64,000 nucleotides of DNA, taken from Rubellicoccus peritrichatus (GTDB lineage: Bacteria > Verrucomicrobiota > Verrucomicrobiia > Opitutales > Cerasicoccaceae). The stretch lies in contig NZ_CP136920.1 of assembly GCF_033100135.1 (NCBI RefSeq), positions 868,001-932,000 of the forward strand. Reading direction: 5' to 3'. Below the pieces are notes generated by a model. The model did not search any database. It was given only the letters and a program-made list of their open reading frames with translations, and was not told the DNA's origin. This document shows positions 57,376 to 64,000 of this stretch, in pieces. Every line of letters starts with the position of its first letter. Position 1 is the first letter of the stretch. A program made the position numbers and the translations under genes.

Positions 57376-58035
57376 TTAAATCTCCTTACGAACTTCGAAA
57401 AGTCTATCATCCGCGCAAACGTAGAATCGATCACCTGCCCTGGCAGCGACTGTTGCCATACTCGTTGTTGAACCGAAAGCAGGTAAAACAAGTTGCGAAT
57501 CCGTCAACCAAAAGGCTTTTGCTCGATGAGCGCAACCTGCGGAATCTTTGACGCGAACACCAGGATGCAGATGCCCACATAATGTGAATTTGCCTTCTGC
57601 CTCTTGAGGCTCATGGGCCAACAAAAATGAACCAAGTGTGTATGCTTCGCTTCTAATTGAAATTGGCAGTTCAGTCACTTTTTTCAATGCCTTCCGGTCA
57701 TGATTTCCGATCACGAGAGTTACTTCAACATCCAGACTCTCTAACCAGTTTTCAAACAGAGTCATTGTATCGACGGCCATCGCCTGACGATCGTGAAAAA
57801 GATCACCTAAGATGATTAAGTGCTGACTGCGGGTTTGCCGGACCAACTGACGCAATCGTTCAAGATCCTCTGCATCTGCACCTTGAGGCAGATACAACCC
57901 GAGCCCTCGATGACTCGCACTTTTTCCGAGGTGGATATCAGCTACCAGAAGCGTACTTTCTGCTGGTAAATAAACCACTTTCTGTGGAAGCAGTTCGAGT
58001 TTAGATCCAGCTAGTTCTAAAGAAACACGCTCCAT
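57376..58035 (-). CDS. pdeM: Ligase-associated DNA damage response metallophosphoesterase (PdeM)
   Basis: This 219-residue calcineurin-like phosphoesterase has metal motifs LLVADIHLGKS, LIILGDLFHDR, VTLVIGNHDRKAL and TLCGHLHPGVRV. It belongs to the group encoded with a Lhr-type helicase, an exonuclease and an ATP-dependent ligase in many bacteria, and is proposed to act as an endonuclease or phosphatase in DNA repair. It starts 3 nt after the helicase stop, so the two are coupled. The ligase and exonuclease are not in this window. Confidence 0.9.
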   Translation of the reverse strand: MERVSLELAGSKLELLPQKVVYLPAESTLLVADIHLGKSASHRGLGLYLPQGADAEDLERLRQLVRQTRSQHLIILGDLFHDRQAMAVDTMTLFENWLESLDVEVTLVIGNHDRKALKKVTELPISIRSEAYTLGSFLLAHEPQEAEGKFTLCGHLHPGVRVKDSAGCAHRAKAFWLTDSQLVLPAFGSTTSMATVAARAGDRFYVCADDRLFEVRKEI

Positions 58036-58038
58036 TGT

Positions 58039-60465
58039 CTATGCCTCCATCTCTGCAGCAAGGAGAGCAATTTTATCCGCCCAGCTTTCACTAGAGACTT
58101 GTTGATGCAGTGCCTCCGCCCAAAGCGGAAAAGCAAATGGGCTGAGCTTCTTCGTGGTATGCAGCCGAATGGGCACTGTCTGTATTCTATCCAATGTTTC
58201 ACGAAGCCGGGTCTGTTCCAGCTGCCGTTCAAGGAGCTCTGCCTTCGCTTGTAAAAGCAATCGATTATCCGTATCATATTTAGCAAATACATCATACAGC
58301 AAGCTCGCAGACATTTGCACGTTCTTGACCGTTTTCTGCTGACCGGGATAGCCTTGAAAGACGAGCCCGGAAATACGCGAAATCTCGCGAAACTGCCGAC
58401 GTGCCAATTCAGTTGTATTCATGCATTCCAGCAAATCTTCCGCCAAGTTGTTCAATTGAAACAGCTCTTGGATGACCGCTTCATCAACTTCAAATTTGCG
58501 AGCTGATTGGAGTGAAAAGCCATAATCATTGACCGTTGTCTTAAGCGTCAATGGTAACTGCCGGCTCAGGCGATAAGCGACAAGCGCAGCAAGGCCTTCG
58601 TGAACGAGGCGTCCCGCAAATGGAAAACAAAAGAGGTTGGATGTTCTTTTGACGCGACACTGTTCAATCAAAAGATACTGACTCATTGGTAAATCGGAGC
58701 GCTCTCTTTGAATGTCCAATAATGAGGCAAGCCGTTTGAGTTCGATTGATTGCTGGTTGTCATGGTCAGCGGAATACTCTGCCAATTCACGAGAAACTGC
58801 CGATGCCAATTCTGAGGAAAGTGGTGCACGGCCGCCTTGCCAACTAGGAGTACTCCCTGCCTTATAACCGGCGCGTTTTACCAGGGCAACCATTCCACGA
58901 AAGCGGACGAGCTCTAAACGTGAACCTGCAAAACTAAAGTGATCACCAGGCTTTAGACGAGTCACAAAACGTTCCTCTATCTGCCCCAGGACAGGGCCGG
59001 ATTTCAGCCTCACGGTTACCTCGGAGTCACTGGTAATCGTTCCAATGCTCATTCGGTGCATTCGCTCAATACGCTTCTCAGAAATTTTCAAAACACCGTT
59101 TTCTTCGATCACTTTGCTGTATTCCGGGTAAGCCTGCAAGGCGCCCGTTTGACCTTTGGCAAAACTCATGATCCAATTCCAATCGTCATCGGCAAGCTTT
59201 TGGAAAGCAGCAGTCGAATAGACTTCCTGCCGCAACTGCTTCTCAGTCAGTGTTCCGTTTAGCGACATAGTAATCACATGCTGCAACAAAACATCTAGAG
59301 CGTTTTGCACTGGCTTACGCGGTTCGATCTCCTTTCGTTTCAACGCTTCACGCGCTGCAGCAAATTCCAAAATCTCCAGCGCGTTCGTCGGCACACCGAA
59401 GATTTTGCTCGTGGCCCCCGGCTGGTGGCCACTACGGCCAGCTCGCTGAACCAGGCGGGCGATACCTTTGGGAGAACCAATTTGTATGACTTGCTCAACG
59501 GGTGAGAAATCAACACCGAGATCCAAGCTGGATGTACAGACGACTGCCCTCAACTCTCCTGAGTCAAGACGCTGTTCAACTGAGTTACGCAGATCACGGT
59601 CCAAAGATCCATGATGCAAAGCAATTAGAGGTTCCAGCTCGGGCTCCGCTTTTATCAGGCTTTGATACCATATTTCACATTGGGCACGTGTATTGGTAAA
59701 TACCAGAGAAGTTCGTGCCGACCGGATTCGTTGGATCACCTCAGGCAATAAGCGTATTCCAAGATGTCCTGCCCAGGGAAATTTTTCGATCGTTTCGGGA
59801 AGCAAAGTTTCGATCTCTATTTGCTTCTCGCATTTGCCTTCAATCAGTATCGATTCATTAATCGCGGCGCCAGTAAGTACTTCTAATGCCTCTTCTACAT
59901 TGCCAATGGTCGCCGATAGCCCCCATCGGCACAGTTCTGGATTAATTGCCTGCAATCGAGACAGCGCCAGCTCAGTCTGAATACCGCGCTTAGTGCCGAG
60001 CAACTCATGCCATTCGTCACAAATAACGCAGTTTACACGGGAAAATTTCTCTGACGCATCTTCGTAAGACAACAACACCGTTAATGATTCTGGAGTTGTC
60101 ACTAATAATTCCGGGAGGCGTCGCTTTTGTCGCTGACGAGTCGATGAGGAAACATCACCGTGGCGAATTTCCACCGTCCAATTAAGACCTACCCCCTCAA
60201 GCATCCGAGAAATCGCATCTGCAGTATCATTGGCCAGTGCCCGTAACGGAGTGATCCACAAAACCTGTAAACCGCTTTGAAGTTTCCCATTGAGTGCTTG
60301 AATCACTGGACCACCTACGGCCGCATAGGTTTTACCAATTCCAGTAGGCGCATGAATAAGTCCGCTTTTTCCAGCTTGATAAGCCTGCCACGCTTCCTGC
60401 TGAAACGGAAAAGCTTTCCAGCCAAGCGTTTCAAACCATTGCTCAATTTGCTTTGTTGGTGGCAT
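58039..60465 (-). CDS. Ligase-associated DEXH-box DNA helicase (Lhr family)
   Basis: This 808-residue SF2 helicase has Walker A HAPTGIGKTYAAVGG, the Lhr-type DEWH box CDEWHELLGTKRG, SATIGNVEEAL (motif III), TNTRAQCEIWYQ (motif IV), SLDLGVDFSPVEQVI and LVQRAGRSGHQPG (motifs V and VI). An Lhr-core region follows with a winged helix and C-terminal helical domain. The DEWH form and the PdeM neighbour place it in the ligase-associated DNA damage response group. The gene begins the pair; the 660-bp gene-free gap lies upstream of its start. Confidence 0.93.
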   Translation of the reverse strand: MPPTKQIEQWFETLGWKAFPFQQEAWQAYQAGKSGLIHAPTGIGKTYAAVGGPVIQALNGKLQSGLQVLWITPLRALANDTADAISRMLEGVGLNWTVEIRHGDVSSSTRQRQKRRLPELLVTTPESLTVLLSYEDASEKFSRVNCVICDEWHELLGTKRGIQTELALSRLQAINPELCRWGLSATIGNVEEALEVLTGAAINESILIEGKCEKQIEIETLLPETIEKFPWAGHLGIRLLPEVIQRIRSARTSLVFTNTRAQCEIWYQSLIKAEPELEPLIALHHGSLDRDLRNSVEQRLDSGELRAVVCTSSLDLGVDFSPVEQVIQIGSPKGIARLVQRAGRSGHQPGATSKIFGVPTNALEILEFAAAREALKRKEIEPRKPVQNALDVLLQHVITMSLNGTLTEKQLRQEVYSTAAFQKLADDDWNWIMSFAKGQTGALQAYPEYSKVIEENGVLKISEKRIERMHRMSIGTITSDSEVTVRLKSGPVLGQIEERFVTRLKPGDHFSFAGSRLELVRFRGMVALVKRAGYKAGSTPSWQGGRAPLSSELASAVSRELAEYSADHDNQQSIELKRLASLLDIQRERSDLPMSQYLLIEQCRVKRTSNLFCFPFAGRLVHEGLAALVAYRLSRQLPLTLKTTVNDYGFSLQSARKFEVDEAVIQELFQLNNLAEDLLECMNTTELARRQFREISRISGLVFQGYPGQQKTVKNVQMSASLLYDVFAKYDTDNRLLLQAKAELLERQLEQTRLRETLDRIQTVPIRLHTTKKLSPFAFPLWAEALHQQVSSESWADKIALLAAEMEA

Positions 60466-61125
60466 ATTTGTATGACATTATGAACTTGGTAAAACGCTTA
60501 TTGCTGTAATTCTCCCAGTGGATAAATCCGGACATCTACTGGATCGGCCATCCGATAGTAACGTTACATACCATTGTGTTTTCAAGCCGCCTGAGCAATT
60601 AGCAGGCATAAAATTTCCTGACCAAAGAAAAAATTGTGAACGAGATTGCGAGTCTTGCTCAAACTGCAGCGACCGCTGGGAAAAATCCAAACACCGACCT
60701 CTATGCCAGTCTCATTTGCCTGGCTCAAATTGAGCGGCACCCAAATATGAAATTGGGCCCAGCCCAACAAACTATTGGGAACCGCCCATCAAGTCATTGG
60801 GAACCGCCCAATGAACTCTTGGGTGTCGCCCAAAATCCAAATGGGCGGCGCCCAAATATCAGCCTCACAATATCCGACTCAGTTACAAGCGTGGGGGTGA
60901 ATGAGTAACTAGAAATGAGTAACATACACACTATCGCTTTCGCTTCAATGGATATGCTATGAGTATTGTCTGTCAGGCCATCGTCAACCGTGTGATCGAC
61001 ACCGATAGTTTATTGGAGGAGTTCATCAGTCGTGAGCATCATACTCAGTGAGAATCAGACTGAATATTTAAATTATTAACATGACCCCTTATTGCTCCCT
61101 CGTTTTTTATATGGTACCACGCGTG
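60466..61125. other. Gene-free gap containing a 22-bp repeat array
   Basis: No gene can be supported in these 660 bp. Open frames exist (for example 60518-60733 and 60636-60908, plus) but have no family resemblance, and the latter runs across an array whose unit is not a multiple of three. A short 30-codon frame at 60959-61051 (plus) is unconvincing. The standout content is the array at 60731-60862. An AAGGGGTCATGT on the minus strand (61079-61090) matches the bases at the right 37-bp repeat in inverted orientation. Confidence 0.65.
60731..60862. repeat. Six-unit 22-bp tandem array with an inverted-repeat core
   Basis: TTGGG starts at 60753, 60775, 60797 and 60819, with ATGGG at 60841, an exact spacing of 22 bp. 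A degenerate unit begins at 60731. The unit core reads about TTGGGnnCCGCCCAA, a dyad of TTGGG and CCCAA around five bases, followed by a variable seven-base spacer. The first (TGAGCGGCACCCAAATATGA) and last (ATGGGCGGCGCCCAAATATC) units share a second half, CCCAAATAT. The 22-bp pitch equals two helical turns, as in iterons or clustered operator sites. Confidence 0.85.
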
Positions 61126-61653
61126 CTAGGGTTCTGCCGTTGGGCTTTCATTAATTACATTATTTAGTTCATCTTGATTTAGAACTACTATCGGCCTAAC
61201 AAGTTTTTCATCCTTCCATACAAGAATCTGAACTTTGGTCTCGCTAGGGATTTTTTTTATGTAAACCATATCGACTAAACCTATATTAAAGTTTAGTTCT
61301 TTTTGAGCAGAAATCTTACTGTCCTTAATCAAATAGGCAAAATAGGATTCTTTTTGCTTAGATCTTCCAGCTAATTCCTTAACAAGAGCATCAGAGATAC
61401 CATGTGGTCGAAACCTATCAATAACCAAGTGTTCGGACAAATATGGTTGACTGACTATTATATAATCTGAATTCCCTTTGTTTTTCAGCTCAAAAGAATC
61501 AAATTCATTATCTCCAAGCTCGAATCCAATAGTTTCAATGCCGTTAGCAAACTCATCAAGTATACTGGCAGATAAATATGTTTTTCCCGTAACCAATAAA
61601 ATCACTGTAAGCAATACAAGCAATGAAATGGCTGCTATATTTATTTTTTTCAT
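61126..61653 (-). CDS. Hypothetical exported/anchored protein, candidate immunity protein for the Rhs toxin
   Basis: This 175-residue protein has an N-terminal hydrophobic segment (IAAISLLVLLTVILLVTG) that would anchor or export it, then a mixed alpha/beta region of about 140 residues with no recognised family. It starts 18 nt after the Rhs stop in the same operon direction, the place where immunity genes of polymorphic toxins sit. The region is AT-rich (20 of 60 GC at 61201-61260, against 32 of 60 in the Rhs core at 63001-63060), also typical of such cassettes. The function is inferred only from position. Confidence 0.7.
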   Translation of the reverse strand: MKKINIAAISLLVLLTVILLVTGKTYLSASILDEFANGIETIGFELGDNEFDSFELKNKGNSDYIIVSQPYLSEHLVIDRFRPHGISDALVKELAGRSKQKESYFAYLIKDSKISAQKELNFNIGLVDMVYIKKIPSETKVQILVWKDEKLVRPIVVLNQDELNNVINESPTAEP

Positions 61654-61671
61654 TTTTCTATAATTAAAATT

Positions 61672-64000
61672 TCACGGTGTATCTTGTAGGCGACCATCAC
61701 ATGCAGCTTCATAAACTTTTTGTTCCAGTTCATTTCGATCTAGTCCAGGGTTCTCTTCAGCAATTTGTCGCCCAACATCATTGTTATGAAGATCCATTGA
61801 TTTTTCTCTAGGATGATTATTTATCGTGTTTTCATGACCATCTGCAATTCTGGAGGCCCTTTCTGGCCCCATGATTCTTGTCATATCAGCAGTCCAAAGC
61901 GCATGCCTGAAGGCATCTGCTCGAGTGTTGTGCTGGTTAATTGATGAAAAGCGTCTGGCTGCTGTTTCTGTGGCATAGTTTGCAGAACGCCACCCCCTAA
62001 AATAGTCCCAATAACTAGGAATTTTATTTCTAGCTTTACATTTACCTTCTGGCATTCTACGTGACAACCCGAAGGGGTCGATAAAACGTATTGGATTATT
62101 TCCAACATACGCATAGATATTTGGTCCATCCACAAAGCCCAGCGGGTCCCTGCTTAACCACCGTCCTAAGCCGGGATCATAGGCTCGGAACCAAGTCAGG
62201 AATAAATTGCCTTCGGCATGATAGTAGTGCCCTGTATAAAGGAAGTCGCTTTCGACGCCTGTTCCACCAATTTTGATGGCTTCGCCCCATGGAGTGTATT
62301 CATACTTGGACTCTACAGTGCTGCCATTATCTGCAACCACTTCGCGAATACTTCCTAAGTGATCTTTGGTGTAAAAGTAATCGTTTGCACCTTCGGTAAA
62401 TCCATTGCCGAAGTATTGCCTTAGGACCGTTGCTCCGGTGCTATCGCGTTTCTCCACAATTGAAGAATCACTCCAGAGATAAATGTGGTTCGATTGCTCA
62501 ACGCCATTATCTTTTTCAATGATGCGAGAGCGACGCGAAAGTCCATCGTACTCAAACTCGCTCCTTAGAGTCGTTCCTACATAGTTGATTGCGGTTAGGC
62601 GATTCAAAGCATCCCACTCGTAGGTCTTTTCCAAATCAGCAACAAGGTTGCCATCATCATCGTAAAGGTAGGTTTGGGCGGCGATGATTGGAACTGTCAC
62701 TTGATAAGTGTCGCTGGCGGTGTTGCCGGAACCGTCGGTGGCGACGATATCGACATCGTGGGTTCCGGGCGCGAGTTCCAACTCTGCTTCAAACGCACCA
62801 TCAGGCAAGAGGCGTGCGGTGGTTCCGCCGACGGTGACGTTGGCAGGTTCGTCTAAAGTTCCGCTGAAGAGGGTCGGTCCACCTTCGCTGCCGGTGAGTT
62901 GATTGAGATCGTTGTAGGCGGATGCTTGAGAGCTCATACCATCCTGGGCAAAGGTGCGGTTGCCCACGCGGTCGTAGCGCCAGGATTCGCTCGAAACGAC
63001 TGTGCCGTTGGAGACAGCTTTCTCGACTGCGCTCAAGAGCTGGTAGGCTTTATCATACCCGTAGTTCGTATTGGTCGCAGGATTGCCACCAAGCTGACGC
63101 CTCCAGTCGATGATGTTACCGGCCGGATCGTAGCTGTAATCGAACTGCGAAAGCATGCCACCCAACTTGTCTATATTCTTGATCTGCTGCAAGCGAAAGT
63201 CACCCGTTTCACCATACCAGGAATACTCAGTTTCCTGCTGGTTTGGATAAACCACCTTATCGAGCAAGCCAGGGGTTCCAGTGTATTGATAGTCGAAGGT
63301 ACCGAGCGTATTGGTCATGCTGTCGATCCGTCCAAGCGAATCATAAACCACACTGGCAGCGACCGAGTTGATCGAACGTCCGAGACTGCGCCCCAGCTCA
63401 TCATAATCGTAGTCGATCAAATCCGAAGCCCAGGGACCATCAACCGTATCAACACGGTTGTTATCATCATAGGTGAAAACCGTTGTGCCAAAACGATCAA
63501 TCATGGTATCCATCCGGTCCAGCGTATCATATGTGTAATCGACATCTCCGGCGGCAGTGTCAATGCTGGCGGTGTTACCATCGAGGTGCATGGCATCAAG
63601 GTTGCCGTTGGCATCAAAAACATACTTGATCGTCTGACCACGTGCGTTGGTGAAGTCAGTTACGTTGCCATTGCCATCATATGCGTACTGCACCTGTTTG
63701 TCGTCAGCATAAATTTTAAACTCAGGCCGATTGCGAGGATCATAAACCCAGCGGGTCAGATTGCCCTCGGCATCATGCAGGGTCTCAAGGTTGCCATTCG
63801 GCTCATAGCCAAAGTGCGTCACCCGGCCCTGCGCATCTTTGCGCGCAATCATGCGCTGATTGGCATCGTAATAAAAATCGGTCTGGTTGCCGTTGCGATC
63901 ACGTGAGTAATCGAGGTTGCAACAAGTCCAATTCCACGACTCATAGGTGCCATCGGGATAATCCACACGAGTCAGGCGGTTGAGACCATCGTAGGCCATA
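61672..64000 (-). CDS. Rhs/YD-repeat polymorphic toxin, N-terminal part beyond window
   Basis: The frame is open to the right edge, so the N-terminus is missing. At least 640 residues are RHS/YD repeats (YDGLNRLTRVDYPDGTYES, DYDELGRSL, YDRVGNRTF), interrupted near residues 400-450 by an Ig-like insert (GTTARLLPDGAFEAELEL). The repeat shell ends with GRWLSRDPLGFVDGPNIYAY and DPFGL (residues 641-645), the usual boundary. The 130 residues after it differ in style: HNTRADAFRHALWTADMTRI, ADGHENTINN and MDLHNNDVGRQIAEENP. This resembles the His/Asn-rich domain of some Rhs C-termini (DUF6973-like, from memory). The tail is the presumed toxin, delivered after autoproteolysis. Confidence 0.88.
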   Translation of the reverse strand, partial: MAYDGLNRLTRVDYPDGTYESWNWTCCNLDYSRDRNGNQTDFYYDANQRMIARKDAQGRVTHFGYEPNGNLETLHDAEGNLTRWVYDPRNRPEFKIYADDKQVQYAYDGNGNVTDFTNARGQTIKYVFDANGNLDAMHLDGNTASIDTAAGDVDYTYDTLDRMDTMIDRFGTTVFTYDDNNRVDTVDGPWASDLIDYDYDELGRSLGRSINSVAASVVYDSLGRIDSMTNTLGTFDYQYTGTPGLLDKVVYPNQQETEYSWYGETGDFRLQQIKNIDKLGGMLSQFDYSYDPAGNIIDWRRQLGGNPATNTNYGYDKAYQLLSAVEKAVSNGTVVSSESWRYDRVGNRTFAQDGMSSQASAYNDLNQLTGSEGGPTLFSGTLDEPANVTVGGTTARLLPDGAFEAELELAPGTHDVDIVATDGSGNTASDTYQVTVPIIAAQTYLYDDDGNLVADLEKTYEWDALNRLTAINYVGTTLRSEFEYDGLSRRSRIIEKDNGVEQSNHIYLWSDSSIVEKRDSTGATVLRQYFGNGFTEGANDYFYTKDHLGSIREVVADNGSTVESKYEYTPWGEAIKIGGTGVESDFLYTGHYYHAEGNLFLTWFRAYDPGLGRWLSRDPLGFVDGPNIYAYVGNNPIRFIDPFGLSRRMPEGKCKARNKIPSYWDYFRGWRSANYATETAARRFSSINQHNTRADAFRHALWTADMTRIMGPERASRIADGHENTINNHPREKSMDLHNNDVGRQIAEENPGLDRNELEQKVYEAACDGRLQDTP

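What the first reader, a model, noticed from the sequence alone, without database searches (positions are those of the whole stretch)
61126..64000. Rhs toxin end plus AT-rich candidate immunity gene
After the DPFGL boundary (residues 641-645) a 130-residue tail changes style and carries conserved-looking His/Asn/Asp motifs (FRHALW, DGHENT, MDLHNNDVGRQ). It is followed 18 nt later by a small anchored protein in AT-rich DNA. This layout is the classic polymorphic toxin and immunity pair. The tail resembles a domain of unknown activity, so the enzymatic action is open. The immunity candidate has a hydrophobic N-terminus, which hints that the toxin may act at the membrane or periplasm.
Basis: partly seen in the sequence, partly recalled or inferred. 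Interest (0 to 1): 0.6.

Follow-up and report, generated by a model that had tools for sequence, protein, structure and literature searches.

The report
Rhs toxin with bacterial Wnt-like tip
The end of this large Rhs surface protein is a bacterial version of the domain that became the animal signalling protein Wnt, here probably used as a toxin that cuts lipid head groups at the membrane of rival bacteria, with a membrane-anchored neighbour protein as the likely antidote; this is a new member of a toxin class described in 2020-2025, with an antidote that resembles nothing found so far.

Summary
The Rhs core ends at DPFGL (residues 641-645), and a 129-residue tail follows. After 18 nt comes a 175-aa gene with an N-terminal membrane segment, in the most AT-rich DNA of the window (33.5% against 48.5% G+C). 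The full Rhs protein has 1814 aa and begins outside the window.

The tail is not of unknown relationship. It matches Pfam DUF6973 (88.8 bits). Its model (pLDDT 90) matches the B. fragilis T6SS effector BteO (Z 14.1), animal Wnts (Z 10-13) and serum amyloid A (Z 8-9); the next unrelated fold has Z 5. It carries His (H2), Glu (H3), Asp (H4), NNxxGR and a fifth helix, the marks of the Min-Wnt family of the Lipocone superfamily (PMC12419801).

Best reading: a secreted polymorphic toxin whose tip hydrolyses a phosphate-linked lipid head group, perhaps of lipid II as TelC does, in the periplasm; the anchored neighbour is its immunity protein. In relatives, 42 of 46 closely following small genes have hydrophobic N-termini, against 16 of 51 comparable gene pairs.

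Activity, substrate and neutralisation are inferred. The immunity candidate has no homologue in any collection searched. New member of a known kind.

The parts
61672..64000 (-). C-terminal 775 residues of a 1814-aa Rhs protein; the gene continues beyond the window (about 3.1 kb further: genome C1 929672-935116)
   Evidence: RHS_repeat and Rhs_assc_core hits
62065..62298 (-). Rhs repeat-associated core domain (residues 568-645), ending in DPFGL
   Evidence: TIGR03696, 77.5 bits
61675..62061 (-). Toxin tip: 129-residue Min-Wnt-like Lipocone domain (Pfam DUF6973), helices at tail residues 17-37, 47-64, 66-77, 84-103, 109-121
   Evidence: PF22322 88.8 bits; model pLDDT 90.4; Z 10-14 to BteO and Wnt
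61903..61905 (-). Predicted active-site His (tail residue 53, helix H2, FRHALW)
   Evidence: 67/67 in A3, but the sampling filter required this residue; matches the H2 His of PMC12419801
61831..61833 (-). Predicted active-site Glu (tail residue 77, end of H3, DGHE)
   Evidence: 67/67, not used as a filter
61792..61794 (-). Predicted active-site Asp (tail residue 90, H4, MDL)
   Evidence: 67/67, not required by the motif filter
61768..61785 (-). NNDVGR: the sNxxGR motif of the SAA-Wnt clade in H4
   Evidence: motif defined in PMC12419801
61126..61653 (-). Candidate immunity gene, 175 aa, no Cys, AT-rich, 18 nt after the toxin stop
   Evidence: no homologue
61582..61638 (-). N-terminal membrane-spanning segment of the candidate immunity protein (about residues 6-24)
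   Evidence: hydropathy 3.12 over 15 residues; helix 6-33 in a low-confidence model

Best explanation
The region is the business end of a secreted Rhs polymorphic toxin. A signal peptide takes the 1814-aa protein across the inner membrane; the Rhs repeats presumably form a shell around the C-terminal tip. The tip is a Min-Wnt family Lipocone domain: a cone of four helices plus a fifth, with His53, Glu77 and Asp90 as the predicted active site at its open end. It probably binds a lipid tail in the cone and hydrolyses a phosphate-linked head group on the outer face of the cytoplasmic membrane of a target cell. The most likely substrate is an undecaprenyl-linked cell-wall precursor such as lipid II, as for the distant family member TelC, with ordinary phospholipids as the alternative. 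The neighbouring 175-aa protein is anchored in the inner membrane with its body in the periplasm, where it would bind the tip and protect the producer. Shown here: gene layout, family, predicted fold, conserved residues, and the anchored-neighbour pattern across relatives. Inferred: export, toxicity, the reaction, the substrate, release of the tip (perhaps involving the N-terminal C39-like domain), and neutralisation.
For: Family: PF22322 at 88.8 bits, cut-off 27. Remote sequence link to Wnt: profile A2 hits Wnt-7a at 7.5e-5, A3 hits Wnt-7a at 0.0013 and BteO at 3.8e-12; 34 of 67 family members match Pfam wnt at E up to 0.1, best 1.3e-4. Fold: model pLDDT 90.4, pTM 0.85; BteO Z 14.1, seven Wnt structures Z 10.4-13.1, five SAA structures Z 8.0-8.9, then a drop to 5.0. 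Active-site pattern and sNxxGR as defined for the SAA-Wnt clade. Published role as toxin tips with TM or lipoprotein immunity proteins, and TelC acting on lipid II outside the cytoplasm (PMC12419801). Neighbour pattern: 42 of 46 close downstream small ORFs have a hydrophobic N-terminus, against 39 of 186 ORFs of similar size and 16 of 51 comparable downstream genes (p 7e-10). Two other Rhs proteins with this tip have a TM or lipoprotein gene next to them (L033 and L010, the latter from the same order). Signal-peptide-like N-terminus.
Against: No activity has been measured for this protein. Lipid head-group cleavage by Min-Wnt domains is itself a prediction; the enzymatically studied relatives named in the paper, TelC and PTDSS1/2, lie in other clades. 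The immunity candidate has no homologue, and its model is poor (pLDDT 51), so nothing ties it to the toxin except position and anchor. The same domain occurs in membrane-anchored proteins without toxin layout in same-order genomes, so the domain alone does not prove toxicity. The loci in A3 were selected partly by the His and NNxxG motifs.
Confidence: 0.8

Rival explanations
1. The tip is a Min-Wnt Lipocone that acts on ordinary phospholipid head groups (phospholipase D-like) rather than on lipid II, still in the periplasm, with the neighbour as immunity protein.
For: Same family and fold evidence. PTDSS1/2, another characterised member of the superfamily, works on phospholipid head groups, and the authors allow for other lipids.
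Against: Nothing here discriminates the substrate. The best-characterised Lipocone toxin, TelC, uses lipid II.
Confidence: 0.3
2. The domain is a toxin used against other organisms (a predation or environmental weapon), and the small gene is an unrelated membrane protein, not an immunity protein.
For: Lipocone toxins without immunity genes are described. The 175-aa protein has no homologue next to any other toxin.
Against: 18-nt spacing on the same strand, and a strong tendency of DUF6973 genes to be followed by small anchored proteins. Several other Rhs genes of this genome also have small genes right after the stop.
Confidence: 0.12
3. The tip is a catalytically inactive or housekeeping Wnt-like domain used for adhesion or lipid binding, not a toxin.
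For: Animal Wnts are inactive members of the clade; membrane-anchored DUF6973 proteins without toxin layout exist in the same order.
Against: All predicted catalytic residues are intact in the tip; it sits exactly at the variable end of an Rhs protein, and the genome has some dozen Rhs cores, several with quite different tips.
Confidence: 0.08

Closest known systems
Min-Wnt family, SAA-Wnt clade, Lipocone superfamily (Burroughs, Nicastro and Aravind, eLife 2025, PMC12419801)
   Same: Four-helix cone plus fifth helix; His/Glu/Asp in H2/H3/H4; sNxxGR; toxin tip of a polymorphic toxin; anchored neighbour
   Different: The neighbour shows no sequence match to the BamE or four-cysteine immunity families described there; the text does not mention a C39-bearing Rhs carrier
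BteO, Bacteroides fragilis T6SS effector (PDB 9uu0)
   Same: Best structural match (Z 14.1) and best sequence match in the PDB; DUF6973-like C-terminal domain
   Different: Named a T6SS effector; this genome has no VipA/TssB match and its Rhs protein has a signal-peptide-like N-terminus. No paper on BteO was found in the library
TelC / TipC of Streptococcus intermedius (LXG, T7SS)
   Same: Lipocone superfamily toxin acting outside the cytoplasm; immunity protein outside the cytoplasm
   Different: Different clade, T7SS export, known lipid II phosphatase; the activity of the present tip is unmeasured
Animal Wnt proteins
   Same: Helical core, NNxxGR segment alignable by sequence
   Different: Wnts are inactive signalling ligands with cysteine-rich insertions; the tip has none of these and keeps the predicted active site

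Membership tests
Min-Wnt / SAA-Wnt clade of the Lipocone superfamily | Core of four helices H1-H4 forming a cone | tested here: met
   Confident model with helices 17-37, 47-64, 66-77, 84-103; structural match to Wnt and SAA cores
[quoted passage not shown]
   Helix 109-121; 13 residues against 12-21 for the core helices
Min-Wnt / SAA-Wnt clade of the Lipocone superfamily | His in H2, Glu in H3, Asp in H4 | tested here: met
   H53, E77, D90; E77 and D90 invariant in 67 relatives without being required by the motif filter
Min-Wnt / SAA-Wnt clade of the Lipocone superfamily | sNxxGR motif in H4 | tested here: met
   NNDVGR, tail residues 93-98
Min-Wnt (rather than prok-SAA) | Closer to Wnt than to SAA | tested here: met
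   Wnt Z 10-13 against SAA 8-9; sequence hits to Wnt, SAA only at E 0.41. No bacterial prok-SAA sequences were compared
Min-Wnt / Lipocone enzymes | Cleavage or exchange of a phosphate-linked lipid head group | not testable with these tools
   Needs purified protein and lipid substrates
Rhs polymorphic toxin | YD/RHS repeats and conserved Rhs-associated core followed by a variable tip | tested here: met
   PF05593, TIGR03696; Rhs cores elsewhere in the genome carry different tips
Rhs polymorphic toxin | Cognate immunity gene directly downstream | tested here: inconclusive
   Small gene present at 18 nt, anchored-neighbour pattern in relatives; binding untested and no homologue elsewhere
BamE-like immunity family (most widespread Lipocone immunity) | Sequence match to BamE / two-helix hairpin then three strands | tested here: inconclusive
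   No Pfam BamE match in the 175-aa protein, while two of ten neighbours of relatives show sub-threshold BamE matches. The low-confidence model has a helix pair followed by strands
Four-cysteine immunity family of Min-Wnt/prok-SAA toxins | Four conserved cysteines | tested here: not met
   The 175-aa protein has no cysteine

The most novel reading that the evidence does not exclude
The 175-aa orphan is a new, previously undescribed class of immunity protein against Min-Wnt Lipocone toxins, anchored in the inner membrane, and the Rhs carrier (signal peptide, C39-like domain, Rhs shell, Min-Wnt tip) is a Sec-exported delivery form of these toxins in a genome without a detectable T6SS.
Probability: 0.4. 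Interest if true: 0.5.

Novelty: new member of a known kind. Interest (0 to 1): 0.42.

Why it matters
Min-Wnt domains are proposed bacterial ancestors of animal Wnt, yet no measured activity of one was found in the literature searched. A small, confidently modelled tip next to a single candidate antidote, in a single-contig genome, gives a compact pair on which the predicted lipid head-group chemistry can be tested.

Tried and rejected
A nuclease or peptidase reading of the His/Asn/Asp motifs was dropped: the motifs are those of DUF6973/Min-Wnt. Homologues of the immunity candidate: none in Pfam, NCBIfam, PHROGs, PADLOC, PDB, PLSDB plasmids, IMG/VR, or in three draws of relatives. One weak match in the class (L111, E 2.6e-4) lies in an ORF that reads like a DUF218/YdcF-type protein (my recognition, not tested) in an unrelated cell-surface gene cluster, and is taken as a signal-segment coincidence. 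The immunity candidate also has no detectable similarity to 62 downstream proteins of relatives. Its structure model is too poor to interpret; VIA-align matches (Z up to 5.5) are mostly beta-propeller fragments. T6SS delivery: no VipA/TssB match in the genome. An orthologous carrier with another tip in relatives was not found (one search gives only weak partial matches, mostly over the C39 region). Papers: none found for DUF6973, PDB 9uu0 or the effector BteO. Rival 1 (phospholipids) differs from the best explanation only in substrate, so the confidences given are not exclusive.

Full report
WHAT IS THERE. The finding covers the 3' end of an Rhs gene on the minus strand and the gene after it. 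The tail is 129 residues. The following ORF begins 18 nt after the toxin stop and codes for 175 residues with a strong N-terminal hydrophobic segment and no cysteine. It is longer than any stop-free run in 2000 shuffles of the same DNA. With 33.5% G+C it is the lowest point of a window that averages 48.5%. Outside the window the Rhs gene continues to a total of 1814 aa, with a signal-peptide-like start (read by eye), a Peptidase_C39 domain at 263-383, sub-threshold carboxypeptidase-regulatory and Ig-like matches, and RHS repeats.

WHAT THE TAIL IS. Pfam names it DUF6973 with 88.8 bits against a cut-off of 27. Relatives were collected from plasmids, viral contigs and genomes. A profile of six relatives finds, in the PDB, a Bacteroides fragilis T6SS effector (6e-9) and then Wnt-7a (7.5e-5), other Wnts and, far weaker, serum amyloid A; a profile of 67 relatives repeats the first two. 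Half of the 67 relatives match Pfam's wnt model on their own at E up to 0.1, best 1.3e-4. The structure model built on those 67 sequences is confident (pLDDT 90.4, pTM 0.85) and all-helical. Aligned to solved structures it gives Z 14.1 with BteO, 10.4-13.1 with seven Wnt structures and 8.0-8.9 with five SAA structures, after which unrelated folds begin at 5.0. Foldseek's own E-value is weak (0.087 for BteO); the gap in Z and the independent sequence evidence carry the assignment.

KNOWN FRAMEWORK. Burroughs, Nicastro and Aravind (eLife 2025, PMC12419801) unite Wnt, SAA, TelC, VanZ and others in the Lipocone superfamily. The prokaryotic Min-Wnt family is the proposed source of animal Wnt. Its marks are a cone of four helices plus a fifth, His in H2, Glu in H3, Asp in H4, and sNxxGR in H4. 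All are present here: H53, E77, D90, NNDVGR. E77, M89 and D90 are invariant in all 67 relatives and were not required by my motif filter; H53 and NNxxG were partly selected for. The paper does not use the name DUF6973, so the equation DUF6973 = Min-Wnt is mine, made from the motifs and the fold. The authors describe Min-Wnt domains as toxin tips, predict cleavage or exchange of phosphate-linked lipid head groups (as TelC does with lipid II and PTDSS1/2 with phospholipids), and note that the immunity proteins they found for Lipocone toxins are all TM proteins or lipoproteins.

THE NEIGHBOUR. I tested the last point independently. Among 67 non-redundant relatives, 46 have an ORF starting within 60 nt after the toxin, and 42 of these begin with a hydrophobic segment, against 39 of 186 ORFs of similar size in the same loci and 16 of 51 small genes that closely follow some other gene (p 7e-10). 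Gene calls in this test were crude ORF calls. In the window's own genome, small genes that follow other Rhs tips are sometimes anchored or exported (L133, L135, L137) and sometimes not (L134, L136, L139), so the anchor is not a general feature of Rhs neighbours there. Rhs proteins with the same tip in a same-order genome (L010) and in a Firmicutes MAG (L033) are followed by a lipoprotein and a TM protein. The 175-aa protein itself has no relative in any collection searched, which fits a fast-evolving immunity protein but also means that its role rests on position and anchor only. It lacks the cysteines of one described family and has no BamE match; its single-sequence model is unreliable.

HOW IT PROBABLY WORKS. 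The Rhs protein is exported through Sec, displayed or released, and its tip reaches the periplasmic face of the inner membrane of a target cell, where it removes a head group from a lipid, most plausibly a cell-wall carrier lipid. The neighbour, facing the same compartment, blocks it in the producer. The genome lacks a VipA/TssB match, so T6SS delivery is unlikely. Family, predicted fold and layout are shown; export, activity, substrate and neutralisation are inferred.

VERDICT. The tail is a new member of a described toxin family, not a domain without relatives. What is unassigned is the antidote.

Noticed in passing
genome C1, loci L133-L141 (outside the window): The genome has 12 Rhs-core sites; tips differ, three carry HExxH zincin-like motifs, and several are followed at once by small genes, some anchored and some soluble.
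   Followed up: partly
L005-L009, L011 (same-order genomes): DUF6973 also ends proteins of about 340-400 aa with an N-terminal membrane segment and no toxin layout; possibly a non-toxic lipid enzyme that differs in motif (DRQNN instead of MDLHNN in L006-L009 and L011).
   Followed up: no
L002 9178-17971 (upstream of the Rhs gene, outside the window): Two very large surface-type proteins precede the Rhs gene: 1239 aa with TSP3/nidogen-like domains and 1671 aa with YadA-head repeats.
   Followed up: no
window 60725-60860: Short palindromic repeats (TTGGGAACCGCCCA and variants, 3 copies within 90 bases; 4 in the window against 0.4 expected) downstream of the immunity candidate.
   Followed up: partly
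L002 3673-9117, residues 263-383 of the Rhs protein: A Peptidase_C39 domain near the N-terminus of the Rhs protein, which could process the toxin.
   Followed up: no
window 57376-60465: An Lhr-like helicase gene and an adjacent calcineurin-type phosphoesterase gene; from memory this resembles the Lhr-associated DNA repair pair.
   Followed up: no
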